Assembly (NCBI GenBank): GCA_963921825.1
Contig: OY997594.1
Span: 60,373,675 to 60,437,674 of the forward strand
DNA from: Erodium maritimum
Taxonomy: Eukaryota; Streptophyta; Magnoliopsida; Geraniales; Geraniaceae
Direction: 5' to 3'
Length of the DNA stretch: 64,000 nt
Shown here: positions 7,861 to 51,649 of the stretch, in pieces
Layout: every line of letters starts with the position of its first letter
Numbering within the stretch: position 1 is the first letter of the stretch
Notes under the pieces: generated by a model
Told to the model about the DNA's origin: nothing
The model's database searches: none
The model's input: only the letters and a program-made list of their open reading frames with translations
Translations under genes and position numbers: made by a program

Positions 7861-10800
7861 AAGATCAGCAGTAGTAACTCTTTTCATGACATTCTTCTAG
7901 TAGGTGGTGATTTTAATTCTGTGTTGTCTGTTGAGGAACGACGTGGCAGTAGTTTCAAGAGAGCAGATGCTGCAGCTTTCTCTGATTTTATTGAGGACTT
8001 GGGTCTTTTGGATCTTGTTATAATCGGGTCTAAGTACACTTGGTATGATACGGTATCAAAAGCCTCTCGCCTTGATAGGTTTTTGGTTTCTTCTGAGGCC
8101 ATCTCTGCTCTTGGTTTGTTGGTTCAACGGGGTCTCCAGAGAGGGGTTTCGGATCATAAGCAGTTGTTTTGGGTGTGGAGGTTGTTGATTGGGGCCCAAA
8201 GCCTCTTCGATTGATTAATGCTTGGCTTGAGAACATGTCGTTCATTCCCACAGTCAAGTTTCTTTGGGAGTCTTATTCTTTCTCCGGCGATCCCTATTTT
8301 GTTTTATGGTCCAAATTGAGGAGTCTGCGAAGGGATTTGCAGGTTTGGAACAAAGAAGTGTTTGGCAGGGTGGATGGAGAAGTGGTAAAATTAACTGCTG
8401 AGTTGGAAAGCTGGGATGCCATTTTGGAGGTTAGAGAATTGGATGGGACGGAGCGTGCTAGCAGGGCTTGATGTCGAGCTCTTTTAATCCAAAAGACTCG
8501 ATGGTTGGCCAGAATTTGGAGCCAAAAGGTTAGATTCCTTTGGTTTAAAGGATGTGATTGGTGCTCTCGTTTCTTTCATCGGATTGCTAATTATAGGGCC
8601 ACTCGTAACCGGATTTCCAGTATCTGTCTGGATCACGTCACTCTAGACACCCCGGTGGCTATCAAACGGGTGGCGGATGAACACTTTGCTAAGCGTTTTG
8701 AAGTCGATCCGGGGGTTTGTGTTGATTTACCACACCTACCTTTTCGCCGAATCTCTGTGGTTCAGGCGAAGTGGCTGGAATCTTCTTTTGATGTGCAGGA
8801 GATTTTTCAGGCTGTGAAAGACTGTGGGGGTGAGAAGGCTGCTGGACCAGATGGGTTCGCTTTGAGGTTTTTTCAGGTGTGTTGGAAAATTGTTGGGTTG
8901 GATGTATGCAATTTTCTGTTATCTTTTCAGGCCTCAGGGAAACTTGACAAAGGGATTAATTCATCCTTTTTGACCTTAATCCCTAAGTCAAATGTTGTCA
9001 CTGGTTTTGATGATTTTCGCCCTATCAGTTTGATTTCTGGCTCGTATAAGATTTTTGGCCAAGGTTCTTGCTAATCGACTCAAAAAGGTTCTCCCGGGGC
9101 TAATTAGTGACACCCAGAGTGGGTTTGTGGCAGGGAGGCAGCTGGTTGATTGGGTTTTTATAGCTTCAGAGTTGATCAAGGAGTTGAAGCGATCGAAAGA
9201 TGAGGTGGTTCTTCTTAAACTGGACTTCGAAAAAGCCTATGATAAAGTCCATTGGGGGTTTATTGATAAGGTTTTGGTGGAGATGGGGTTTGGATGATTA
9301 TGGAGATCTTGGATGCAGGGTTGTTTTAAAGCCTCGTTGTCAGTTTTGATAAATGGGTCGCCAAGCTCAGATTTTCAGATTCTTAATGGCATCCGGCAAG
9401 GGTGTCCTTTGTCACCTTTTCTGTTTCTAATTGCTGCTGAGGGGTTGCATCAACTCCTGGAGGATGGGTTGAGAACCGGGGCCTTTAGGGGAGTCCAAGT
9501 AGGTTCGGCTGGTCTTGTTGTCTCTCATTTGCAGTTCGCAGATGACACCCTATTGTTCATCAAGGGTGATATGGAGGGTATTTTTTTCATCAAAGATTTG
9601 TTGGAGAAGTTTCAGAAGGGGTCGGGTCTGAAAATAAATTTTTCTAAGTCAACTGCTGTGGTGTTGAATAAGAGAGTTTGTTTGGAAGAAGATGTTGCCC
9701 GTTCCTTAGGATGTCAGGTGGGGTCGTTGCCTATGAAATATTTGGGCTTTTGGTTGGGCGTGAACCCGAGAAGATTTTCAACTTGGGACTCGGTGGTGGA
9801 AAAGTTTAAAAAAGCCCTTGGTTTGTGGAAACTCAAGAACCTGAACATGGCAGGTCGCATTGTTTTAATTAAGTCGACCTTATCGGCTCTTCCTTTGTTC
9901 TTTATGTCACTTTTGAAAGCCCCTAAAAAGGTGATTTCTGTTTTAGAAGCTTGGTAGAGGAGGTTTTTGTGGACTAATCCTTTCACAGGGAAGATGTTCT
10001 GCAAGGTTCGTTGGAGTGTGGTGTGTAAATCCAAGGAGGAAGGTGGACTTGGTATTAGGAGGTTGGGGGCAATGAATGCCAGTTTATTGGCCAAGTGGTA
10101 GTGGAGGTTCGCTTGTGATTCAGATTCTCTATGGAAAAAGGTCGTTTGTGCACTTTTTGGCTGGGACACATCTGATTGGGACCTTCTAAAGGTTGATAAG
10201 CCGAGGTCCTCTTTCCTGGTCAATCATATCATTTCCTTGGCATCTGATCCTAGTTTTGAGGCACTTTTTGGGAATCAGAGTGTTCATTGGAGGTTGGGGA
10301 AGGGTGACCGAATATCTTTTTGGGATGATGTGTGGGTAGGATCCTCCTCGCTACATTATCGTTTTCCAAATCTTTATTCGTTGGCTGCAACAAAGTTCAA
10401 GAAGGTGCAGTTCTTTTGGCTCTCGGGAGTTTGGAGAGTTGGTTACCTGCGTGAGCTTGAGCATTGGGAAGAAGAGGAGGCCTTGGTTTTGATGGGTTTG
10501 GTGGATGGAGCGATGTTGAGACCGGATATGGAGGATTGCATGATTTGGGAGAAGCATGTTAAGGGCTTCTCGGTCTCCTCTACCTATCGTTGCTTGGCGG
10601 GGCCAGTAGGGGGAGTACCTCCAGTGGAATGGGCATCGATTATGTGGGTGAAGAATGTCCCGCCGAAGTTCTGTGTGTTTGTGTGGCTGGCAGCTCACAA
10701 CGCTCTTCCTACCAAGGAGTTCTTGGAGAGCAGAGGTTTGCAGATATCTTTGAATAGTATGTTATGTCCTTTATGCATGCTATTTTTTGAATATGTTGAT

Positions 10801-11381
10801 CATGTTTTACTACATTGTGAGTTTGCTTGGAAGATTTGGAGTAGGGTGTTTTTATGGTGGAAGGTGTGTGGTCCTATGCCGAGAAGTTTGGGGGATGTTC
10901 TACTTTGGTGGAAGGGGTTGGGGTCCAGGCAGTGGTGGTCTGGTTGGGTTCGGGTTGCTTATGTGACGTTATGGTCTATTTGGGTTACTCGAAACGGTGC
11001 AGTGTTTAATCAGACCATGGACAATGAGATTGGGGTGATGGCGAAGGTCCAGACTCATTCTTTTGGGGTGTGTTGGAATTCAGGCTCTTTCCGCCTAGGG
11101 GTGACTTTTGAGGATTGGGTTAGAGACCCGTCTTGGTGCCTATGGAGTGGCAGGAGGCAACAACAAAGAAGGATTGTTTGATGCTCTTATGTTACCTTTT
11201 TGGTCTTGTTTATGCTTAGTTTGGTTGTTTTGTTCTTGGTTTTCAGTTTTGAACTGTTGTTAAGCTTTCGTAGCTGTTTTGGTATGGAGATCTGGCCCTG
11301 TTTTGGGGTCATTTCTTTCGTTTCGTTCTATTCACTAATAGAACGAATGCTGAATAAAATCTTTAGCCTATCAAAAAAAAA
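7850..11381 (+). mobile_element. L1-type LINE, 5'-truncated, with poly(A) tail
   Basis: The plus-strand retroposon begins inside the endonuclease domain (GGDFNS at about 7905), runs through reverse transcriptase and zf-RVT, and ends with a 3' untranslated region. That region has a late ATAAAATC signal followed by TATC and ten A (11373–11382). A frame compatible with LINE coding can be read back to about 7858, where the CACTA palindromes stop, so the true junction is within a few tens of bases. I found no convincing target-site duplication between about 7860 and 11382. Confidence 0.85.
7890..11178 (+). pseudogene. LINE ORF2: endonuclease (partial), reverse transcriptase, zf-RVT
   Basis: Polyprotein that copies LINE RNA by target-primed reverse transcription. 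The order is the endonuclease C-terminal part (GGDFN, then RLDRFL and SDHK), a linker with RFFHRIANY, reverse transcriptase (AAGPDGF, FRPISLI, ANRL, LDFEKAYDKV, GIRQGCPLSPFLF, catalytic FADD at 9535–9546), the thumb region, then zf-RVT (VPPKFCVFVWLA, LCPLC, DHVLLHC). Damage includes a one-base loss in a G run near 8170, one extra T in the T run near 9051, TGA at 8469 and 9295, and TAG at 9955 and 10099. The stops at 9295 and 9955 fall where tryptophan is expected. It cannot yield a full protein. Confidence 0.88.
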
Positions 11382-21803: not shown

Positions 21804-24166
21804 CTATTTGTATACGTTATGTGGCGTAACTAATGAAACATTACTGTACATAGACCGGAACTTTTGAAAATCAATTTTGTTCAATTTCAAGACCAATACG
21901 TTATTGATATGATTGAGAACTATTGGTATTTTTGTTGCTTCTGCTCCTCCATCCTTTAATGTTCCTTTGGCTGCATTTAGACCCAACATACAGACATTCA
22001 CATTGCTCATAGCCTCCTTCATTCATCAATTATGAAAAAAATTGTTGCAGTACCTCAGTTCTCAGGATGAATGGCTTTAGACTAGTGACTTTAGGCTGCT
22101 GCAGGTGCATTGTGCTTCTTCCATCTCCTCACAATAATTCTGTGCTGATCCTTGCTGCCAATATCAACAACCACAAAACTTAAAACAACAATGATTTGAT
22201 CGACTAATGTAGGAGGTTGCTCAGTAATAGTTTCAGAATTTGAGCTCTACAACTGATTCCTCCCACTGATCAAATCATTTCTCAAGAAACTTCGCATTTC
22301 TTGATTCCACAATCCTGGTGCTATGAGATGGACAGTAAAATCTATATCCCTTGGATCGTTCCGCATATCCAACAAAATAACCGCTAAGGGTTCTAGGATC
22401 CAATTTCTTTTCTTGTGGGCTGTATATCCTCACTTCAGACGTGCATCCCCATACGCGTACATGGTACAAACTCGGTTTCCAACCCTTGAATAATTCAAAA
22501 GGTGTCTTTGAAACAGACTTGGTTGGAACACGGTTTAATATGTACACATCCGTCTTAAGTGCGTCAGTCCACAATAATAATGGGAGATTCATACTCCTCA
22601 CCATCTCCACCAAGGTCCAGTTTCTTCTTTCAGCTACACCTTTCTCACTAGGAGATTCTGTATTGGTGTATTGAGCAATTATTCCATGCTCTTGAATAAA
22701 CTTAGCGAACGGACCCGATGCTTGACCACCTTCGTTGTATCTACTGTAGTACTCTTCTCCTTTGTCATTCCTGACAATCTTGATTTTCTTCTCATATTGA
22801 TTTTCAACTTCTACTCTGAAAATCTTAAATACGTCTAATGCTTCACTTTTGTGGTGAAGAATATAAACATATGTATACCATGAGAAGTCATCAATAAATG
22901 AGATGAAGTATTTCAGACCAATATTCATATCCATGTCAAGACATCAAATATCTATATGGATGATTTCAAGTAATTTGGAACTTATGTGTGCACCCTTTTT
23001 GGATATCTTGGTTTGCTATCCCTTTATGCAATCCACACAAACCTCGAAATCAGAAAGGTCTAGAGTACTAAGTACTCCATCTTTTACTAATCTCTTGATT
23101 CCATCCATCGAGATATGTCTCAATCTCTGATGCCACAACATTGAAGATTCCTCATTTTCAACGCATCATTTTGTGCCAGTTTCCATCTGCATAACCGATT
23201 TAGTGGTGTTACTTTGAACATTCATCATAAATAAACTATTGCACAAAATGCCATTTCCCATAACATCAAATTTATTGAATAACTTTTGATGTATCACGGA
23301 AATAAAAGGCATAGTCAAAAGGCAATAGTCTAGATATAGATATCAAATTCCTGGGAAATCTAGGTACATGGAATGTATCATGCAAAGTTAACAAATAACC
23401 ACTAGATAATAGTTATTTGGCACATTTCAACATATTTAACACTGAGCGCACTTTGTTTCCTAAATAAATGCATTGCTCATTTCCTGCATCTATGTTGAAA
23501 CATGGATTGAAGAACCATATTCAGTCCACCATGCGTTAACAAGAACATCAACCACATTGGACTCGTCCTTATGATGTCATTTTGCCTTCTTCTGGGTTGT
23601 AAGCATTACAGTCTCACCTTGCTTCATTATCAACCGGCTTTCCTCTTGAACACACATAGTCATGAGTTCATTCATCGACCATTTATCCTTATGTGTGTTG
23701 TAAGATATTTCGAAAGGACCGAATTGATGAGGAAGAGTGTTCAAAATGCAATGCACCAAGAAGGTGACAGACATCTCGACTTCCAATGTTTTTAATTTTT
23801 CCGCAATATCCCTAATTTCTCATGATGTGCTCGTGCAGACCATGGAGACATGTGAGCTTAACAGAGGAAAACTGTCCGATGAGGGTACTAGCTAAGGATT
23901 TATTCGAAGTCTGGAATTGCTCATCAATTTCTACGAGAAGCGATCGAGCATTTCCATACTTCTCCACCAATCTCCTTATGCATACAAAATGTATCTATCA
24001 ACGTACAACTTGCCTGTGGGCTAAAGCCATACGCAAACAAAACATTGCATATACACATAAGTACCCTCTCTTTCCAGATGGAGTAGTTTTCCCCATTCAG
24101 CATGGGAACCTCTACTTTGAGGTCATTAATATTCAAAGAGTTTGATGCTACAAACATTACATGCAT
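21804..24166 (-). pseudogene. Copia gag and integrase remnant
   Basis: Gag part: VPMLNGENYSIWKERV near 24110, then a UBN2-like region (VHCILNTLPHQFGPFEISYN near 23720) with frame breaks between. A protease-like WWTEY word lies near 23525. GAG-pre-integrase (LWHQRLRHISMDGIKRL near 23110) leads to a long open integrase piece, 22275–22934. That piece has [37 protein letters not shown] and [16 protein letters not shown], i.e. the D, D and E neighbourhood of a retroviral-type integrase core. It then continues in broken frames to about 21804. Several stops and frame changes make it non-functional. Confidence 0.8.
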
Positions 24167-39500: not shown

Positions 39501-40569
39501 ATTTAAACCGGAAGAATCTGAGTTGTTAGTGGGCGAAACTCCTGCAAATGTGTTTCCAATGGGTTCAGACCCATTCAACTCAACTGAATCAATCACTCAA
39601 ATATTTACTCTACGGTCATTGTTTCCTTAAATACTACTCTATGGAAGACTTGAAAGCAGAATCGTCTATGGTTAAATCTAATATTGTCTCCAATTGGCTG
39701 TCCAAAACTCACACCACTTTGTCTGTCCTCAACATGGTTGTTTCAAGAAGCATTGTATAGTGAATGTATCATCTTTTGATTAACCTAAACGTCTTCGTGG
39801 AAGTTGGAAGTCACGTAAATGACCAAGATTGTAATAACTTGTTCCCAAAGTTATGTCATTTGCCAACTTATCTATCGGCCCTATTAGATAACCAACTCAA
39901 CTAAAATCTTAAACTGATAGTTGAAAGACCAATTATAATTATATTCTAACACACGTCCTCACGGACAAGCCTGTTTATGGGTTTGGAGGTGAATTATTTA
40001 AAAGAGGAGATGAGCTCATTGAGAAGAGTGATAAGGGCTGACCTATTTTGGGCAAATTTGATAAATAGAGAAGAAATTAGAATTTTTGTAGTTAGTGAGG
40101 TTAAAACCCGGGTCCATGAGGAATCAAGCTCTGATACCATAATAAAAAACTAATTCAACTAAAAGTTCAAGTTGATAGTTAAAGGGCTAATTATAAGGGT
40201 AAATTACGTTTCACTACCCCGAACTATACGCGTTTAACGGTTTACTACCCCAATGTTCACTCGTACCAATCACCTACCCCGAACTAACGTTTAGTAACGC
40301 CGTTGGTACCTTCCATCCACTTTTCCATCTGTTCACTGTTCATTTTTCTAAAATGGCAAAAATACCCTTATCTCTTCAACCCTAAATACCTATCCAACCC
40401 CAAGTCCAACCCTAACTTGCTCTCCAACCCTAAACCCACCTTTCTTTTTTATATTTTTCAACTACAAATTAAATTATTTAAAAAAAAACAGATCTGTTAA
40501 ACTAAATTTATAAATACAATTATTTTAAAAAATTACATTTTTATTTTTATATCAAGTAATTTTTTTAAT

Positions 40570-41190
40570 ATTAACTCACCCACCCACACCACACTTCTCC
40601 CTCACCCACACCACATCGTCTCCCTCACCATCATCGCCGCCACAGTTCCCTTGCCAGCAGATCTGGTCCGTCCCGATCTTCAACTCGCCGGTAGCAACTC
40701 GGGGACCGGAAGATGAAGATCTTCAACCCTAACTTCCAATACCTCCCTCTCCCTCTGTTGACCTCCCTCTCTCTCTCCACAAACTCGAGTTTTTTCTGCT
40801 CTTTCCATCGATTTCTCTCTTTCCATGTTAAACCCATCTCTGTACCCTTTTCAATTTTGTGCAAATCTGAGATCTGAAGAACATGTCGGAGAAGACGATG
40901 TCGCCGTCCTCCGAGTTCGTGATGGGTTGTACTGTAGAAGATGCTGCCGCTGTCCTCATGTACTCCACGGGCTCCTCCTTCGCTAGCCATGGATTGAAGA
41001 CGGGAACCATAAAATCCGGCATGATTCGTCGGATCTGGAACGACCTCGACGCGGTCTGTTCATCTCCGGCGAGGTTTCTTTCGCTGGCCAAGGGATGAAC
41101 TGGTGATGAAATGAACTGCTGATGAAAGATGACGAGCACCATGAAATCCGGCCTGATTCGCCAGATCTGGAACGACCACGAAGAGTTGTT
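40570..41190 (+). other. Gene-like cargo of the outer MULE, including a 71-codon ORF
   Basis: A CT-rich leader-like part (40570–40880) is followed by an ORF from ATG 40883 to TGA 41098 (71 residues, starting MSEKTMSPSSEFVMGC). A 45-bp segment ending in CCAGATCTGGAACGACC is duplicated (about 41005–41045 and 41133–41173). GC content is well above the AT-rich shoulders. I do not recognise the protein. The composition and position suggest a captured host-gene 5' region, but a genome search is needed to show a parent gene. Confidence 0.4.
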
Positions 41191-41642
41191 CGTCTACTTC
41201 GATGAATTTATATATATTAAATAAAGAAATCAAATTTGTAAAAAGTTTATTTTAATTATATTTCAATTTTTAAGAAATAAGTAATGAATATTCAATTAAA
41301 AATTTATTCTAAATATATACATTAAAAATAAATAAATAAATCAAAATTTAAAAAAAATTATTATCAGTTTTTTTTTAAATAGTTATTAATAAGGGTAAAT
41401 TACAGATGCATACCCTTAAGTATGGCCGTTTAACCGATGCATACTCTTAAGTTTGAACTTAACCGATGCATACCCTACGTTTCATTAATTAATAGAAAAC
41501 CCCTTCTGTCAGTCTGCCGTGACGAAAATGGTCACGTGTTGATCACATGGTACGGAAATTTTTTGATAATGGCCAGAATGCCCTCAGGTGTTCTTCTTCT
41601 TCTTCTTCTTAGGTGAGTCGCGTTCAAACGTCCTTGTGAGAG

Positions 41643-42367
41643 ATGATCAGCTCTGAAGGAAGGAGAGAAGCGACAGGAAGGGGGGAGATGGAGGACGATG
41701 TGTGGAGGTGTTGTTGTGGTCTCATAGCTCCCATTCAAACCTCAAGGACGAGCGAAAATCTTGGGAGGAGGTTCGCTGGATGCGCACTGTACAAGGTAAG
41801 AAATTGTGCCCTAATTTCGAATTTCTAGGTTTTGGGAAATCGATGGGTAGGATTAAGGAGTAGTTAGAAATGGTGAAGGGTTTTGTGAAATGCCCCTTTC
41901 GTTTGAGTTTCAGATGTAATTGACCCTGTTAAGAAGGCTTTGGTTAATGTTTTGTAAAATCGATTTTGCAGAGTTCAAGGAAATGCAGTTTCTTCAAGTG
42001 GATTGATGATCCTACTTGTGCTGCTGGGAAAAGGGTGCTGCCAGGGTTGTATTCAAGAATCAAAGCATTGGAGTGCACAATTCAGATTGTGGATGAAGAA
42101 AATGTTAAGCTACTGAAATCATTAGGTGAAATGGAGAGGAGAAATTCAAGTCTTGAGAAGGAGTTTGAAGTAATGTTAACTGCAAAAGCTGAAGTGGAAG
42201 AGAAGAATTCAACAATGGAGAAGGAAATTAGGAAAATGAATGAAGTTATTGAGTGGATGGAGGTGGAGAAAAAGGACTTGGACAAGAAAAAGAAAAAAAT
42301 GTGGATGTTTGTGTTCATCACATTTTGTATTTTGTTCAGCTTAATCTCTAGTTCAGTAGATGTGTAA
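41643..42367 (+). CDS. GRF zinc-finger, coiled-coil, membrane-anchored protein carried by the MULE
   Basis: Two exons, 41643–41795 and 41972–42367, join in phase 0 (AAG|GTAAGA donor, TTTTGCAG acceptor) to give 182 residues without a break. The GRF-type zinc finger spans about residues 22–63: CCCG, SENLGRRFAGC, then CSFFKWID after the junction. Conserved Cys23/25, Cys47 and Cys56 are the likely zinc ligands. A long Glu/Lys/Met-rich coiled coil follows (about 75–158), then a C-terminal hydrophobic segment (MWMFVFITFCILFSLI, about 160–178). ATG codon 16 is an alternative start. Similar small GRF proteins of unknown role are common in plants. Here the gene lies within the terminal repeats and converges with the transposase gene, so a role as a second MULE protein is inferred. 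The splice junction falls inside the finger. Confidence 0.8.
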
Positions 42368-42958
42368 TAGAGAACAAGTATGTGTATGTTGTGTTGAATG
42401 TACTTGTAGTTGAAAAAGATGGTTGGTTTTGAACTCTGAAAGATTTGCAATGAGTTATTTGGTTTAGTTGTGTTGAGTTGCAATGAATTATTGGGTTTGC
42501 AATGTAGTTGGTTTAGTTGTACTCATTTCATGTTGTGGTTCATTTGTTGACAGGTCTTGGAAGCAAATGTAGCACAATTTGTACATGACTTGGCTTGAAA
42601 TTTTGAAAAATTTGGACAGGACTTGGCTGGAAATATAGCAAGACCAAGACCTGTTCAAATGACTTAAACATTTCATAATACACAATGATCCTTAAATTGA
42701 CTTAAACATTTCATAATATCACTGAAATAACATTCAATCATACAAACCATACATCATTTACTCAAATGATCCTGAAATTGTCATGAAATGAGAAGGTTGT
42801 TCAAATGCACATGCACACATAAAGAACCATAAAGGTTCCACCTACCAATACACAATGACACCTTAGTGGCAACACAGAGAATCTTTCTTACAAAAAAAGA
42901 CATAAACTGTCATGGTGTTGCTGTAGCATTGGGGACCACTAAAAAAACCCTAAATTGA
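42368..42958. other. Intergenic spacer between the two convergent MULE genes
   Basis: AT-rich sequence expected to hold both 3' ends. Words such as ACTTAAACATTTCATAATA are repeated (about 42663 and 42700). No further gene seen. Confidence 0.4.
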
Positions 42959-42961
42959 TAA

Positions 42962-45900
42962 CTAAGGGATCCAAGTGGTAGAGGAAGTTGGCTGTGAGGT
43001 GCTCCCACTTCCAGATCTCAAAGGAGGTCTTCCTCGACCTCTAGCACCTCTCCCTATAGTTGTTGCTCTGCCTCTCCTCCCTCTCCCTCTTGATGAGCTT
43101 GCAGTAGCAGGAGGTGGTTGGGATGTTGATCCACCAACAAAAAACCTAGCTTCTTGCATGAATCTTGTTCCGCCGGCTGCTCCCAACGAGGTGAAGGCTT
43201 GTTGTGGTATGAAAAATTGAATTCAGTTTGTGGATAATTGAAGGCTTTGAATATTAATTTTGTACCATCGTTACCTGACTTTGTTGTTGGTGGAGATTGA
43301 GTTCCTGTTGTGCTAGGCCAACTGAAGGTGGAGGCTGTTGTGGTTCAGGGTTCCGAGCACGCATCCTGCGAAGGGCTTCTTGCCTTTTGGCTTCAATTTC
43401 ATCTTGGGTGCAGGTTTTCCTCCTTTTCTTCATTTTATTAAGTGCAGACTCTTGTCTTCTCTTCTGAACCTCGGCCTCCTTATCAGTACCCTGTCGAGTA
43501 AACAGATAACAAGTTATAGTACTAGATTAAACATACAAGCAAGGTATAGCAAGGTTGAGTAAACATACAACCTTAGATTGGTCATTTGTTGGCATCTGCT
43601 GACTTTGACCCTGAAATATACAAATTAGATTGATTAACATATATCAGTACACAATTTGAGGAAAATAAATTTGAAGCGTAAATTGATTACCTTAGCTTGT
43701 GTCTGTCTGGCCTTTCTTTGTGTGGATGTTTCACCAATGTCCCTTGCAGAGCATGTCCTTTGGTTGTGTCCCTTTTGTTTGCATTTAGAACACGTAACAG
43801 TTGTGCTATTCTTTGTAGCTTTGTGAGGGTTCTCACCCTTCTTGGTAGCTGTCTGAGCCTTCTTGTGACTGTTCTCAGCCCTCTCACCAGCACTTGGCAT
43901 CCTCCTAGTCCTAGGCCTACCAGGGGGTTTATGAGCTATAGGTGGAGACAGTTTTGGGTACCCTAAATCCCTTGGCCAATTTTCCCTAGTTGGCACTGGT
44001 CTAACGAAGGATGAGTACACTTGTTTATTGGTGCTAACATGGTAGTATTTGTGTACATAATTATGAACTTCATCTCTAATGAAACTAATACATGCCACTC
44101 CATGGACACACGGTAAATCGTTCAATTGGAACTCTAAGCATGTACAAGTTAGGGCCTTCAAATCAACTGTGAAAGACCTGGTGTTTTGTTTGACCTCAAA
44201 CACACCACCACCACTAGCTAGTATTGAACAAGACTTTCTACCCTCCTCCTTCAACTTAGCTAGGTGTTTAGCTATAGCTTTACAGATAACCCCATCGTAC
44301 CCCTCATGTGAAGTATGTCTCCTATAGAAAAGCCCCATTAATTGTTTTCTAATTTCCTCTAAGAGGTCATATATAGGCATCTCCCTAGCATCAAGAATCC
44401 ATTTGTTGAAGGAATCGGATAGACTGTTTACCTGAACACTACTACAGGCCCTAGTAGTGTAAAATAGCTTGCACCATCCACTAGGATCCTTATCGCTCAG
44501 CCAGTCATGGGCAACCGGATCTATCAACTTCAGCTTCTCCATCCTCTCCTGAAACTGTGTTTGGGACGATGCCTTAGCACAAAGCCACACCTGTGCTTTC
44601 AGTTCCTCCCCTTTGAAGGTCGTCATGAAGTTGTCGACCAAGTGTCGAACACAGAACCTGTGCTCGACACCTTGCATCCAATCTTTAAACAGTTCAACCA
44701 ATCCCTACATTCAAACTTTGTCAGTTCAAGTTATGTGAATGGTAGATGAACGTAACGAAAGTTGAAGAGTTAAGTAGAAAGTTTACCTTTAGTTTGTCAG
44801 ATATGATGACCTAGCCTCTCAAATCATTGGTTCCATAATCATCAAAGAATTGCTCCAGGAACCAATGTCATGATGCTTTATTCTCTTGTTCGACCACCGC
44901 AAATGCTAGTGGTAGCATGCCCTTGTTCCCGTCCCAGCCAACAGCACTGAGTAGCACACCCCCAAAATCTCCTTTTAGATGGAAGCCATCGATTCCAACG
45001 AGGGATCTACACCCAGCCAAGAAGTCTCTCCTTTGAGCCTCATACCGTATATAAATCCTTCTAAAATGTGACTTAGCTTCTAGTTCATTTTCCACATGAA
45101 GGTGTTCGATATCCACCTTCGCTGTGCTGTTACAGTTTGTCTGTCGAACCTGAAAGAGGGTATAAATCTGTTAGAAAATAAATGCAAAAGCTAGGTACTT
45201 CATAATGGAATTTACATAAACACATACCATTTGGCAGTAAGTGTATAAATCTTCGTACTGCTTCGCCTTGTCCCCACCAAGAATTTCCTTAGCCCTCCAG
45301 ATAGTCATATATGTTGTCTGTAAATGAACAGACATTTTCACTGCATTTAGGATCTTCTTCTGCATCTGTTTGCCCGTCATATTTGGGCTTGTCATCACCT
45401 CACTCAAGAACCTGCAAACACAAAGCCACAACCAATTAGTAGACACCCATTGTTGAAAATAAACATTCACTACAACTCATCCTAGTACATACACTAACCT
45501 TTTAGCTAGGTATTCAATGGTGCACTGCCTGATCCTTTGTGATCCTTCACAGTTGTGCTTAGGCTTCCAATTCTTGATCGACAACACCACATTGTCCTTA
45601 TCAGCGCTTGCGTAGCAGTAGAAAGGGCAGTCAGGTCCAGTGCATACAATGCCAATCTTCTTGGGCTCGTTCCTTGTAAAATTGTAGTCAAACTCATGCT
45701 CCACAGCATAAGCTTTCAAGACCAGCCTGCAAACTTTGGCATTTGCAAATGTGGAATACAGTCCTAATTCCACACCCTCTAGGACTGACTCCTCGTCCCA
45801 CATTTGCTGCCACCCTCTATACCTTGTAGGTTCGGGTTCTTCTTCGGATTCCTCATATGAATCAATGAACCCTTCAGGTACTTCTGCTCCTTCTGGTCCT

Positions 45901-47310
45901 TCTGCTCCTACTGCTCCAGTTCCACTTTCATCTTCAACTCCGTCTTCTGCGTCAGGTACTTCAACATCCTCACCATCATCTAACTGTATCTCCACAGCTT
46001 CTTCCTCCATAACCGCTTTCCCTTTCCTCACCCTCTCAGCCTCCTCATCTCTTGATTTCTCCATTTCCTCTCTCAACCAATCATCCTCTTCCTCACTTTC
46101 TGGTTCAGGCTCATGTACAGCATCAGGATGAATTTCAGGTTGTCTATGAGGTTCCTCACTTTCTGGATGATCATGATTTTTATCAAAATGATGATCATCA
46201 TCATGATGGTCATCATCATGATCATCATTTTGATCATCATTTTCATCACTACTCTCTTCATCTGACTCAAGTGAATAAACAACATTCACTTTCCTACAAT
46301 CACCCTTCATCTGCATTCTCTTAAACTTACTTGGGCTTACAAATAAGTTACACTTGTTCTTCACCACACACTTCTCTATTGGATTATACCTCTCATCCTT
46401 AACTGGTAGTGCTGACCACAACAAATCACCCCGAGGGGAAACTACCCTAACAGGCTCTATGCCTAAACCCACATACATTGATATTGCTACAGTTTCAGGG
46501 TATGTGTCAAACATTTCATCAAAGTCCTTATCAGCCTCAACTAGCTTAAACCAAGCTGGCTCCCAATTATTTCCAATATGACAACCAGGGACTTTCCAGA
46601 ACAGTAAGGAATTTGGTGGGCATCCTAACTTAGCTATTAATGTCTGAAACCTAAAGTATGCACATTGCTCTTGAGGAAGTACGACAAATTCAATGTCGCC
46701 TCCCTCATATCGGGTGAAACCATCAGTTATCTCCCCCCATAGTGAATTTCAAACATCCTATGTATGATTTCATCGGGCTGATAGAGGAGAACAAAACACA
46801 AACAAAAAGCAACAAACAAGTAACACAATGTCAGGACAGTGTCGAAGTTTTTTCAAAACACAAAAACAAAAACCCTAATTTTTTTCATATCATCTATACT
46901 GCATTGACAATGTCGAAGTTTCAGAGCATCCTCACAACCATAACTCCACAATTCCTTTCACCACAGACCAAAACCCCTAAAAATTTCAAAACCTAGCTGA
47001 CATTCAAAGGCATTGTGCTATTCAAATGTATTCTTGTTCATTTAAACTCACATTCATCACAGAAAAATCCAAATCAAACCAACACACCCTACCCCGATGC
47101 ATATCAGATAACCCTAATGTCTAAACTTCACAAACCCTAGAAAAATTCAACCCCAACCAACAACCAAGCAACACAGAAATTTCAAATCGCATGAAGAAGA
47201 AGGTTTCGAGCACTTACAACATCTGCATCGTCGAACCCTTCGTCTTCGAACCCTTCGTCTTCGTACATGTAACCACCGCTTTCAGAATCGGACTCCGAAG
47301 TTGAAACCAT
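42962..47310 (-). pseudogene. MuDR-type MULE transposase, eight exons, with two nonsense codons and one frameshift
   Basis: Minus-strand exons inferred from splice sites and frame: 47218–47310 (ATG at 47310, acidic start), 45499–46777, 45226–45411, 44787–45149, 43691–44704, 43572–43610, 43275–43490, and a last exon from about 43190 to the TAG at 42962, whose acceptor I could not fix. Exon 2 has a MuDR N-terminal region (DEIIHRMFEIHYGG; TRYEGGDIEFVVL) and a long acidic stretch. Exon 4 has the MULE catalytic core (LVGIDGFHLKG, AVVEQENKAS). Exon 5 has VEHRFCVRHL, a SWIM finger (CTCLEFQLNDLPCVH) and a CCHC knuckle (CSKCKQKGHNQRTC). The tail is GRG-rich. Lesions: run of six G (46733–46738) one short of frame, TGA at 44868–44870 and TAG at 44811–44813, both replacing expected Trp. 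Confidence 0.88.
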
Positions 47311-48121
47311 GTTGTAAGCTCCCTCTTCTCTCTGGTCTCTTCTCTCCTTCTACTCTCTCATCTCTTCTCTCGCGTCTCTTCTCTTCACAGAAATTTTCGT
47401 CTTTCTAAAGTCCACCGTCACAGACTGTTAACGGAAGGGGTTTTCTGTTAATTAATGAAACGTTAGGGTATGCATCGGTTAAGTTCAAACTTAAGGGTAT
47501 GCATCGGTTAAACGGCCATACTTAAGGGTATGCATCTGTAATTTACCCTATTAATAATTTAAGAAATGGATAATTATAAATATTTAATATTGAATCACTA
47601 AAGAATTAATAATTACTTTAAAAAATATATTTAAGAATTTTTTAAAACCTGTATAAAAAATCTGATTTTTAAAATATATTTTTATAATTTTTAATTATTT
47701 TTTAGTATTAAGTAGATGGGTTTGTGAGTAGGGGTAGATTTTGGTAATTTTTAATATTATCCGAGGGTATTTTCGTCATTTTACAAAAAAGTTAACAACT
47801 ATGGATGGAAAGGGGGTAACGTCGTTACTAAACATTAGTTTGGGGTAGGTGATTGCTATGAATGAACTTTGGGGTGGTCAAACGTTAAACGGGTATAGTT
47901 TGGGATAGTCAAACGTAATTTACCCTAATTATAATTATATTCTAACATACTCAACAACACTATCCTTATTTAGCCCTAAAACCCCGATTCATGAATGAAC
48001 AAAATCAGCTTAATTGGTCGATCATAAAAGAGTAATAAATATGCTCAAAAAGCCCCAAAACTTCCTTTTGGATGAATCTGGGAGTATGCTTTGCGATTTC
48101 ATAACGTTTGCTTCAAAACCT

Positions 48122-49438: not shown

Positions 49439-51418
49439 TCATCTGCCGGAGAGTTGCGTGAAGGGAGTGATCTGTCCTCCGGTGAGAGAATTGTCACATT
49501 CCTTGGAGAAAGACGGAGGCATGGCCGGCCACATGAAAGCGGGCCTCTCCATCGGCAGGTACGGCGGATCAGCCTCTCCGGTGAGAACCTGCAACACGAT
49601 CTTCATGGAAGGCCTCTTGTGCGGATTCGGATGGCAGCAAGCCAGCCCCAGGATCATCAGGCACTCCATTTCTTCGCTCTCGAACTCCCCCTTCAGCTTC
49701 CGATCCACCGCCTCGAGCATCCTGTTCTTGCTCCGGAGGTTCCACAGCCAGTACACTATGCTATTGTTGTAGTCATTGTCCTCCTCGCTCTGATTTCCAG
49801 GCTTCCTCCCGCAAACAACCACCAGAACGAGGACCCCGAACGCGTAAACGTCGGTCTGCTCGGTGGCCCTGCCGGTCAGCAGGCACTCCGGCGCCATATA
49901 ACCCGGAGTCCCAGCGATCGCCTGGGTGGAGTGGTGGGTGAGGTCGTTCTGCTGGATGGTACGCGCCAGGCCGAAGTCTCCCAGCCTGGCGTTGAACTCG
50001 GAATCGAGCATGATGTTGCTCGCCTTGACGTCCCGGTGGAGCACCTTCCTCTCGCACCCGTTGTGGAGGTAATCCAAGGCCTGCGCCACCCCGAAGATGA
50101 CGTGGCTTCTCGTCCCCCAGCAGAGCATGGGGTCCTCCTCTCCCGGGGCGAGCTTCTTGTCCGGGAAGATATGCTTGTCGAGGCTGAAGTTGGGCATGAA
50201 CTCGTACACGAGGAGGAGGTCGTGCCTCTCGTAGCACCACCCGATGAGCTTCACCAGGTTCTTGTGATGGAGGCTCCCGATGGTCGTCACCTCCGCGATG
50301 AACTCTTGCTTGCCTTGCCGCGAGTTCTCCGAGATCCTCTTCACGGCCACGTCTCTATTGAGAAGATGCCCCTTGTACACCGTCCCGAACCCTCCGCTCC
50401 CGAGCTTGTTCTTCAGGTCGAAGTTGCCCGTCGCTCTCTTGAGTTCTTTCAACTTGAACTTCCTCGGAGCCATGGAGCTTCCCGAGATCTGATCCTCCAG
50501 CCGAGGATAAGCTTCTTGCTCGATCTCTATCCGATGCTTCCTGTTCCAATACAAGAGACACAAGACCCCACAAAGCAAGACAAGGGCCGCTATTGGAACC
50601 GCTATGACAATCAACAAGTTGGACTTTTCGGCGTCCACGTCATCAGCGTAGAACTCCCAGGACCTGACACAGTTAAGCTCCGTGTAGTCGCTGGTAGAGC
50701 CCGCGAAGCCGACGTAAACCTCTTCGGGAAGATAGGCGGAGAGGTCAAGAGGCTCGGAGATCACAAGGTGATCGAGAAGATCATCGTCCGTCATCGAAAC
50801 GAACACGGAAACAACCGTTCCGTTGTAGCTGACATGGACATAAACGTCGGTGCCTTTATCGCCGCCGGCGGTGAGATTGACGCCGTGTTGGAGCAACGAT
50901 TCCTGCCTGATGGAGTAGACGCTGTTGACGTCCAAGCCGACGTGGTTCCCGTCAACGTCCTCGGGATAGCTCCGCCTGGTGTCGAACTCGATGGCCACGA
51001 TCCGAGCGCGGGACGAGCCGTTGGTGGCCTGGTTGACGATGCCGAGCCACTGGCCGGAGCTGTGGTCGGGGAGGGAGGAGTCTCCGGTGAGGATGAAGGC
51101 GAGGCCTTCCCCTCCGGGAGAGGTGCGGGGGGTGATGTTGATGAGGAAGGTGGTGTTGAAGGAGGTGGGGGTGGGGTGGTCTTCGCCCCAGAGGCGGAAG
51201 CGGTGGTTGTGGACGATGCGGCCGGACTTGTTGAAGATGGAGGCGACGCTGAGGTCGGGGGTGACCTGGATGGCGTTGGAGACGATGTAGGATGTGTTGC
51301 GGATGAAGTGGAGATCATCCAGACCGTCTCTGAAGGACGGGTAGTAGATTTCGAAGCAGCCCACTTGAGTATCAAGGATCAGGAAGGCTGCGAGGAGTAA
51401 AAGTATGGATATGCGCAT
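49439..51418 (-). CDS. L-type lectin-domain receptor-like kinase
   Basis: Plasma-membrane receptor kinase: an extracellular legume-lectin domain linked by one membrane helix to a Ser/Thr kinase. Members act in defence, hormone and developmental signalling; the ligand is unknown here. The single-exon frame is intact at 659 residues from the first true ATG (51418); the frame extends 14 codons upstream but only from GTG. Signal peptide about 1–21 (RISILLLLAAFLIL). Lectin domain about 22–258, with the metal-site region IVAIEFDTRRSYPEDVDGNHV. Transmembrane 268–290. Kinase about 330–615, with GSGGFGTVYKG (340–350), VAVKRI (Lys360), Glu376, HRDVKASN (461–468, Asp463) and DFG (481–483), so an active RD kinase is expected. 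GC content is much higher than its surroundings, as usual for intronless members. It could be a singleton-clade (S-type) LecRK, but the subgroup cannot be fixed by eye. Confidence 0.93.
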   Translation of the reverse strand: MRISILLLLAAFLILDTQVGCFEIYYPSFRDGLDDLHFIRNTSYIVSNAIQVTPDLSVASIFNKSGRIVHNHRFRLWGEDHPTPTSFNTTFLINITPRTSPGGEGLAFILTGDSSLPDHSSGQWLGIVNQATNGSSRARIVAIEFDTRRSYPEDVDGNHVGLDVNSVYSIRQESLLQHGVNLTAGGDKGTDVYVHVSYNGTVVSVFVSMTDDDLLDHLVISEPLDLSAYLPEEVYVGFAGSTSDYTELNCVRSWEFYADDVDAEKSNLLIVIAVPIAALVLLCGVLCLLYWNRKHRIEIEQEAYPRLEDQISGSSMAPRKFKLKELKRATGNFDLKNKLGSGGFGTVYKGHLLNRDVAVKRISENSRQGKQEFIAEVTTIGSLHHKNLVKLIGWCYERHDLLLVYEFMPNFSLDKHIFPDKKLAPGEEDPMLCWGTRSHVIFGVAQALDYLHNGCERKVLHRDVKASNIMLDSEFNARLGDFGLARTIQQNDLTHHSTQAIAGTPGYMAPECLLTGRATEQTDVYAFGVLVLVVVCGRKPGNQSEEDNDYNNSIVYWLWNLRSKNRMLEAVDRKLKGEFESEEMECLMILGLACCHPNPHKRPSMKIVLQVLTGEADPPYLPMERPAFMWPAMPPSFSKECDNSLTGGQITPFTQLSGR

Positions 51419-51649
51419 GTTCCTCTGTGGTTGGTGATGGATGTGCAAAGTTATGCTCACTGCAAACCTTCATTTTATGGCTGAAACTTTCCTTTTTTTC
51501 TATTTTCTATATTGCTCAACAGAACCTTCCTTGTAATTGAGTAATTAGCTGCATATACAGACCTTGACCAAATGATTTTTTTTATTCGGTTGTTAGAGTC
51601 AATGGTGCATTTGCTTAAGGAAAAAAAATGACTAGTCACACTTAACATA
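51419..51649 (-). promoter_or_regulatory. Proximal upstream region of the kinase gene
   Basis: AT-rich sequence between the kinase ATG and a retroposon insertion. Contains TTATAT-type words around 51550 but no certain TATA box. The insertion at 51650 limits the original promoter to about 230 bp. Confidence 0.4.

What the first reader, a model, noticed from the sequence alone, without database searches (positions are those of the whole stretch)
41384..47557. MULE carrying an intact GRF zinc-finger/coiled-coil/membrane gene convergent with its transposase
Exact 9-bp duplications and ~130-bp terminal repeats prove that both genes belong to one mobile unit. The second gene codes for GRF finger, long coiled coil and C-terminal membrane helix, and remains open while the transposase has decayed. 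The layout mirrors mudrA/mudrB of maize MuDR, whose second protein has no known relatives outside close MuDR elements. Plants contain many small GRF proteins of unknown role; this suggests at least some are a MULE accessory protein.
Basis: partly seen in the sequence, partly recalled or inferred. Interest (0 to 1): 0.88.

Follow-up and report, generated by a model that had tools for sequence, protein, structure and literature searches.

The report
Jumping gene with zinc-finger partner gene
This stretch of plant DNA is a mobile element that carries, facing its own transposase gene, a second gene for a small zinc-finger protein; the same facing pair recurs in dozens of related elements of this genome, so the zinc-finger gene looks like a standing part of the element and not a stray passenger, although what it does is not yet shown.

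Summary
Window 41384-47557 is a Mutator-like element (MULE): exact 9-bp target duplication, 132/133-nt terminal repeats, a broken transposase on the minus strand, and a spliced 182-aa GRF-finger/coiled-coil/membrane-tail gene convergent with it. In the plant's own 763-Mb genome, eight complete elements of two subfamilies have exact, different 9-bp duplications and the same convergent pair. Of 114 transposase loci, 61 have a convergent GRF gene on the 3' side: 49 of 55 at 50% identity or more, 12 of 59 below. In these capped lists no GRF gene lies within 10 kb in any other arrangement. GRF dN/dS between subfamilies is 0.32-0.43 (25 pairs); three pairs tested give Fisher p of 2.3e-4 or less. The six best Pfam-GRF places elsewhere in the genome are only distantly similar. 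So the gene is an old, selected second gene of a MULE clade. Its role, perhaps that of a MURB-like helper, is inferred. The membrane tail was absent from the two most distant copies read. My open-access searches listed no paper evidently about GRF fingers in MULEs.

The parts
41384..41392 (.). left 9-bp target site duplication TATTAATAA
   Evidence: identical to 47549-47557
41393..41524 (+). left terminal inverted repeat with ~30-nt sub-repeats
41643..41795 (+). GRF gene exon 1 (start at 41643 or 41688; first half of the GRF finger)
   Evidence: other copies
41796..41971 (+). intron of GRF gene, GTAAGA...TTGCAG, splitting the finger
   Evidence: 23 of 28 chosen donors read GTAAGN, GTGAGT or GTTAGT (GT and AG themselves are by construction of the script)
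41972..42367 (+). GRF gene exon 2: rest of finger, coiled coil, C-terminal membrane helix, stop
43634..44704 (-). transposase C-terminal exon: end of catalytic region, SWIM finger, CCHC-like knuckle (knuckle read by eye)
   Evidence: PF04434 26.5 bits; open in this copy
44800..45170 (-). transposase catalytic fragment (MULE domain), with two in-frame stops near its end
   Evidence: PF10551 24.2 bits, below cut-off 27.6; stops
45171..45476 (-). transposase middle fragment
   Evidence: 59-92% identical stretches in ten other copies
45477..46748 (-). transposase N-terminal region with DBD_Tnp_Mut; frameshift near its 5' end
   Evidence: PF03108 25.9 bits
47218..47310 (-). probable first coding exon of the transposase
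   Evidence: read from frames; splice sites not confirmed by transcripts
47416..47548 (-). right terminal inverted repeat
47549..47557 (.). right 9-bp target site duplication TATTAATAA

Best explanation
The element is one degenerate copy of a two-gene MULE clade. Gene 1 is the DDE transposase. Gene 2, transcribed towards it from the other terminal repeat, codes for a GRF zinc ribbon joined to a coiled coil and, in the nearer subfamilies, a C-terminal membrane tail. Shown: gene 2 moves with the element, recurs in a fixed convergent place, and has been under purifying selection. Inferred: it is an accessory protein of transposition. My likeliest mechanism is that the GRF ribbon holds single-stranded DNA at excised ends or the donor gap (GRF ribbons of APE2, NEIL3 and TOP3A bind single-stranded DNA; recalled), the coiled coil makes oligomers that bridge the ends, and the tail, where present, tethers the complex to a membrane, so that the protein aids reinsertion much as maize MURB is needed for new insertions. 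I give about 0.9 to 'integral, selected second gene' and about 0.4 to 'helps integration through single-stranded DNA'; the figure below is for the first part with a role in transposition of some kind.
For: Eight elements with exact 9-bp duplications and both genes (window; L050, L051, L053; L042, L045, L047, L048; genes placed). Pairing in 61 of 114 transposase loci, each on the 3' side and opposite strand. GRF dN/dS 0.32-0.43 in the 25 between-subfamily pairs; three pairs tested give Fisher p 3.6e-6, 5.4e-5 and 2.3e-4, with the lowest pN/pS over the finger. Cysteines C23, C25, C47, C56, the GRRF motif and FFxW are invariant in the five divergent GRF proteins aligned. Same intron place in both subfamilies and in L056-L058 (read). 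Nearest solved structures are NEIL3 GRF domains, E 1.3e-6. Precedents: PMC6446971 (passages and the section holding its Table 1) reports extra ORFs, often antisense, in plant MULEs; PMC9168764 (passages and one section) reports an antisense ORFR in Abermu elements and cites MURB as needed for new insertions.
Against: No expression, binding or transposition data. All counts come from one genome and from capped lists. Coil and tail are less constrained than the finger (pN/pS 0.60-0.62 against 0.25-0.37; Fisher p 0.03-0.05), and within subfamilies dN/dS runs from 0.38 to 1.88, as expected of dying copies but also of weak constraint. A membrane tail is odd for a protein that would meet DNA. At 40-44% transposase identity only 1 of 32 loci was paired by search, plus one (L058) by direct reading; below 40%, 0 of 10. 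PMC9168764 notes recent activity of an Abermu lacking ORFR, so such ORFs may be dispensable.
Confidence: 0.75

Rival explanations
1. The GRF protein protects the element from silencing or repression (like VANC of Hiun/VANDAL) rather than taking part in the DNA reactions.
For: Accessory ORFs of plant MULEs with anti-silencing roles are known (PMC6446971 passage). The pairing and selection data fit this equally well.
Against: The passage describes vanB and vanC as divergent proteins, and GRF is not mentioned in that paper's main text; a membrane tail does not suggest a chromatin role.
Confidence: 0.25
2. The GRF gene is a host gene fragment captured recently by this element (Pack-MULE-like passenger).
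For: MULEs capture host genes, and GRF domains occur in host-like genes of this genome (six places).
Against: The gene is shared beside transposases down to 43-44% identity with the same intron place; dN/dS 0.32-0.43; the stretches around the six places show at most 46% identity over 24 aa. An ancient capture at the root of the clade is not excluded and is likely in some form.
Confidence: 0.04
3. A stable but dispensable passenger that is kept because its promoter or DNA serves the element (for example the terminal-repeat promoter or regulation by convergent transcripts), with the protein mattering little.
For: Weaker constraint on coil and tail; only 10 of 28 copies keep the frame through the tail.
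Against: Finger residues are invariant across the five divergent proteins aligned and protein-level constraint is significant in the three pairs tested.
Confidence: 0.12

Closest known systems
maize MuDR (mudrA/mudrB)
   Same: MULE with ~9-bp duplication, long terminal repeats, and two genes transcribed in opposite directions (layout as described in PMC9168764)
Abermu MULEs with antisense ORFR (PMC9168764)
   Same: antisense second ORF between transposase and a terminal repeat, evolving faster than the transposase, Ka/Ks below 1
   Different: the passages I read name no domain for ORFR and call its function unclear; 'GRF' does not occur in the main text
Plant MULE groups with plant mobile domain (PMD) ORF, often antisense (PMC6446971 Table 1)
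   Same: antisense accessory ORF noted for groups 42 and 47-50
   Different: the accessory domain is PMD there; 'GRF' has 0 occurrences in the main text
GRF zinc ribbon proteins (Pfam PF06839; NEIL3, APE2, TOP3A)
   Same: finger matches PF06839 above cut-off in four of the five proteins scanned (L058 at 23.2 bits is below) and NEIL3 chains
   Different: no enzyme domain found; coiled coil and, in nearer copies, a membrane tail instead; carried by a transposon

Membership tests
Mutator-like element (MULE) | 8-11 bp, usually 9-bp, target site duplication | tested here: met
   exact 9 bp in window and in 7 relatives; L049 inexact, for L052 only one end found
Mutator-like element (MULE) | long terminal inverted repeats | tested here: met
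   132/133 nt; 139 and 136 nt in L042 and L047
Mutator-like element (MULE) | MULE DDE transposase with DBD_Tnp_Mut and SWIM | tested here: met
   PF03108 and PF04434 above cut-off; PF10551 24.2 bits, below its cut-off of 27.6, in a fragment broken by stops
MuDR-type two-gene element | second gene convergent with the transposase | tested here: met
MuDR-type two-gene element | second protein homologous to MURB | not testable with these tools
MuDR-type two-gene element | second protein needed for insertion | not testable with these tools
   needs a transposition assay
Pack-MULE | no transposase, carries a captured host gene fragment | tested here: not met
   transposase present; GRF shared across the clade and under selection
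GRF zinc ribbon (PF06839) | profile match and finger cysteines | tested here: met
   35.9 bits against 25.9; cysteines invariant in the five proteins aligned
GRF zinc ribbon (PF06839) | single-stranded DNA binding | not testable with these tools
   recalled property of APE2, NEIL3 and TOP3A; needs an assay
VANDAL/Hiun with VANC | VANC-like anti-silencing protein | not tested
   no VANC sequence compared; in the Pfam scan only GRF is above its cut-off in the second protein

The most novel reading that the evidence does not exclude
A whole clade of plant MULEs has carried, since before its transposases diverged to 43% identity, a GRF-finger/coiled-coil protein as its standard second gene. This protein is the recognisable counterpart of MURB, acting on single-stranded DNA ends during reinsertion, and much of the unexplained set of small plant GRF genes consists of MULE genes or their domesticated descendants.
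Probability: 0.35. Interest if true: 0.8.

Novelty: new variant of a known kind. Interest (0 to 1): 0.62.

Why it matters
MURB of maize MuDR is reported as needed for new insertions (PMC9168764 passage), but PMC6446971 calls its function unknown. A MULE accessory protein with a domain of known fold and suspected single-stranded DNA binding would give that question a biochemical handle. It also warns that many plant genes annotated as small GRF proteins may be transposon genes: in this genome 52 of the 94 GRF loci found with one query lie within 10 kb of a MULE transposase in one fixed arrangement.

Tried and rejected
Recent host capture was rejected. Exchange of the GRF gene between subfamilies was considered because GRF dS (about 0.65) is lower than transposase dS (about 1.2). 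Fourfold sites differ, in the one pair tested, as 9 of 32 against 86 of 187, Fisher p 0.08, so I make no claim. The transposase and the GRF protein were sought in viral contigs, and the GRF protein in genome contigs, without result. The protein collection gave no GRF relative and three distant transposases. Rfam gave nothing at gathering level. Literature searches answered. I judged their listings by title and start of abstract and opened only PMC9168764 and PMC6446971, so a link inside an unopened paper (for example the seven) is not excluded. Searches timed out, so PMD and MURB-207 could not be searched.

What the counts leave out: one search scored 40 of 1388 candidates, 114 of 1499, 150 of 843 and 150 of 981, and the printed lists were cut short, so absence from a list is weak evidence. 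Loci within 3 kb on one strand were merged in both GRF lists, and in the transposase list. Within 50 kb one search counts 55 convergent 3' neighbours and 4 in other arrangements. C2:26050823 and C2:26064235 look like one segmental duplication and are not independent. The 10 copies used for dN/dS were chosen for open frames.
Full report
The element. The window lies at C7:60373675-60437674 of a 763-Mb genome in 40 contigs. Bases 41384-41392 and 47549-47557 are the same 9-mer, and 132/133-nt inverted repeats start at 41393 and end at 47548. On the plus strand a two-exon gene codes for 182 aa with a GRF zinc ribbon (PF06839, 35.9 bits), a coiled coil (heptad core positions 74% hydrophobic against 18% in the best register) and a hydrophobic C-terminus. 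On the minus strand lie pieces of a MULE transposase with DBD_Tnp_Mut, a sub-threshold MULE domain and SWIM. It has a frameshift and two in-frame stops, so this copy is unlikely to be autonomous.

Copies in the same genome. The GRF end of the element (1248 nt) matches 28 places that hold GRF sequence (window included), the others at about 68-98% nucleotide identity. I read the gene in all 28. The script chose for each copy the GT-AG pair that best matched the window protein; 23 of 28 chosen donors read GTAAGN, GTGAGT or GTTAGT. Ten copies keep an open frame through the membrane tail (window, L014, L018, L019, L028, L036, L042, L043, L044, L047). L042 has lost a finger cysteine; L027 and L046 are open but with lost finger cysteines or a shortened coil, and were not counted. 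Complete elements were checked where I held the DNA. Exact 9-bp duplications flank the window copy, L050, L051 and L053 (subfamily 1) and L042, L045, L047 and L048 (subfamily 2). The eight duplications differ from each other and each element has the same convergent pair. L049 has both genes and both ends but an inexact duplication, and for L052 only one end was found. Between subfamilies the catalytic and C-terminal pieces of the transposase are about 60-72% identical, the N-terminal region mostly 41-58%, and stretches of the GRF protein about 46-70%.

Pairing test. A transposase exon as query gave 114 loci after merging (merged). The window GRF protein gave 94 loci. Within 10 kb there are 52 neighbour pairs; all 52 have the GRF gene on the transposase's 3' side and on the opposite strand, none in the three other arrangements; 0.28 pairs are expected by chance. 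By transposase identity: 10 of 11 at 80% or more, 32 of 36 at 60-79%, 7 of 8 at 50-59%, 3 of 59 below 50%. The one miss at 80% or more is an internal deletion in which the transposase end runs into the terminal repeat (L055). Of the other five misses at 50% or more, two have a convergent GRF about 18 and 40 kb away, as later insertions could cause, and three are unexplained. A distant GRF protein (L056, from beside a 44% transposase) as query raised the class below 50% to 11 of 59, again 11 of 11 in the convergent arrangement: 10 of 17 at 45-49%, 1 of 32 at 40-44%, 0 of 10 below 40%. Reading the 3' flank of one 43% transposase that neither list had paired showed a convergent GRF gene with the same intron place and a coiled coil (L058; PF06839 23.2 bits, below the cut-off). 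In all that makes 61 of 114, a lower bound. Of the 94 GRF loci, 42 have no listed transposase within 10 kb. Some of these hold transposase fragments (L016 and L043), and L017 and L019 show the terminal-repeat end but no transposase within the 1.5-kb flank held. The rest were mostly not read and may be remnants, host genes or domesticated genes.

Selection. NG86 on the 10 open copies gives dN/dS 0.32-0.43 at dS 0.57-0.70 in the 25 between-subfamily pairs, and 0.38-1.88 within subfamilies. For three between-subfamily pairs the excess of synonymous change has Fisher p 3.6e-6, 5.4e-5 and 2.3e-4; pN/pS is 0.25-0.37 over the finger (p 3.6e-6 to 7.8e-4) and 0.60-0.62 over coil and tail (p 0.03-0.05). 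The transposase of the window copy against five subfamily-2 copies shows 0.15-0.17 at dS 1.1-1.3. The GRF protein is therefore selected, but less strictly than the transposase. The open frame of the window copy alone would prove nothing.

Where the tail goes. Window, subfamily 2 and L057 (beside a 68% transposase) have finger, coil and membrane tail. L056 (44%) and L058 (43%) have finger and coil but no tail in the copies read. The invariant core in the five divergent proteins aligned includes the four finger cysteines, the GRRF motif and FFxW. The finger, not the tail, is the constant part.

Function. The nearest solved chains are NEIL3 GRF domains. From recall, GRF ribbons of NEIL3, APE2 and TOP3A bind single-stranded DNA. 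I infer a role at single-stranded ends or gaps, with oligomers through the coil, serving reinsertion as MURB does; PMC9168764 cites that no new insertions were found in maize lines without mudrB (passage). An anti-silencing role like that of VANC is the main rival; nothing I ran separates the two.

What is known. PMC6446971 (passages and the section with Table 1) lists extra ORFs, often antisense PMD, in plant MULE groups, and its main text does not contain 'GRF'. PMC9168764 (passages and one section) describes antisense ORFR genes of unclear function in Abermu elements, and its main text does not contain 'GRF'. Full-text searches for GRF finger with MULE and transposase, transposon, Mutator or transposition gave no or few papers, none of them evidently about this by title and abstract start; those papers were not opened. 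Repbase and most subscription papers were not searchable, so the pairing may be recorded there. I rate it a new variant of a known kind: a two-gene MULE whose second gene carries a recognisable domain.

Noticed in passing
window 40188-47934: The element sits inside another MULE-like element: inverted repeats of about 180 nt at 40197 onward and up to 47925, opening with nearly the same letters (GGGTAAATTAC), flanked by TAATTATAA on both sides. Without the insert it is about 1.56 kb and looks non-autonomous.
   Followed up: partly
G000, e.g. C4:44059169, C3:81595706, C6:73018105, C8:20895843: A large set of GRF exon-1-like stretches with a 61-aa open frame, most at 53-60% identity to the L056 finger, with no transposase of this clade within 10 kb in the lists; perhaps the second gene of a further MULE group.
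   Followed up: no
window 41915-41926: The GRF intron holds a stretch resembling the inverted terminal-repeat end (TGTAATTGACCC against TGTAATTTACCC), also in copies L013-L015 and L049, L050, L052, which overlap. Chance or relic of an internal end is open.
   Followed up: no
L007:4128-4561; L024:407-859; L027:2828-3220: Short elements of about 0.4 kb with the same or related ends; the last two have exact 9-bp duplications (ATTACTTTA, ATAAAGGTT): probably small non-autonomous derivatives of the clade.
   Followed up: partly
G000:C2:26050823 and C2:26064235: Two GRF loci 13.4 kb apart with identical scores and identical proteins, each with a convergent transposase: probably a segmental or tandem duplication that includes the element.
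   Followed up: no
window 49439-51469, minus strand: A 676-aa open frame that reads like a lectin-domain receptor kinase (judged by eye, no family search).
   Followed up: no
window 8472-11181 (+) and 22275-22943 (-): Frames that read like a LINE-type reverse transcriptase and a Copia-type integrase (judged by eye, no family search).
   Followed up: no
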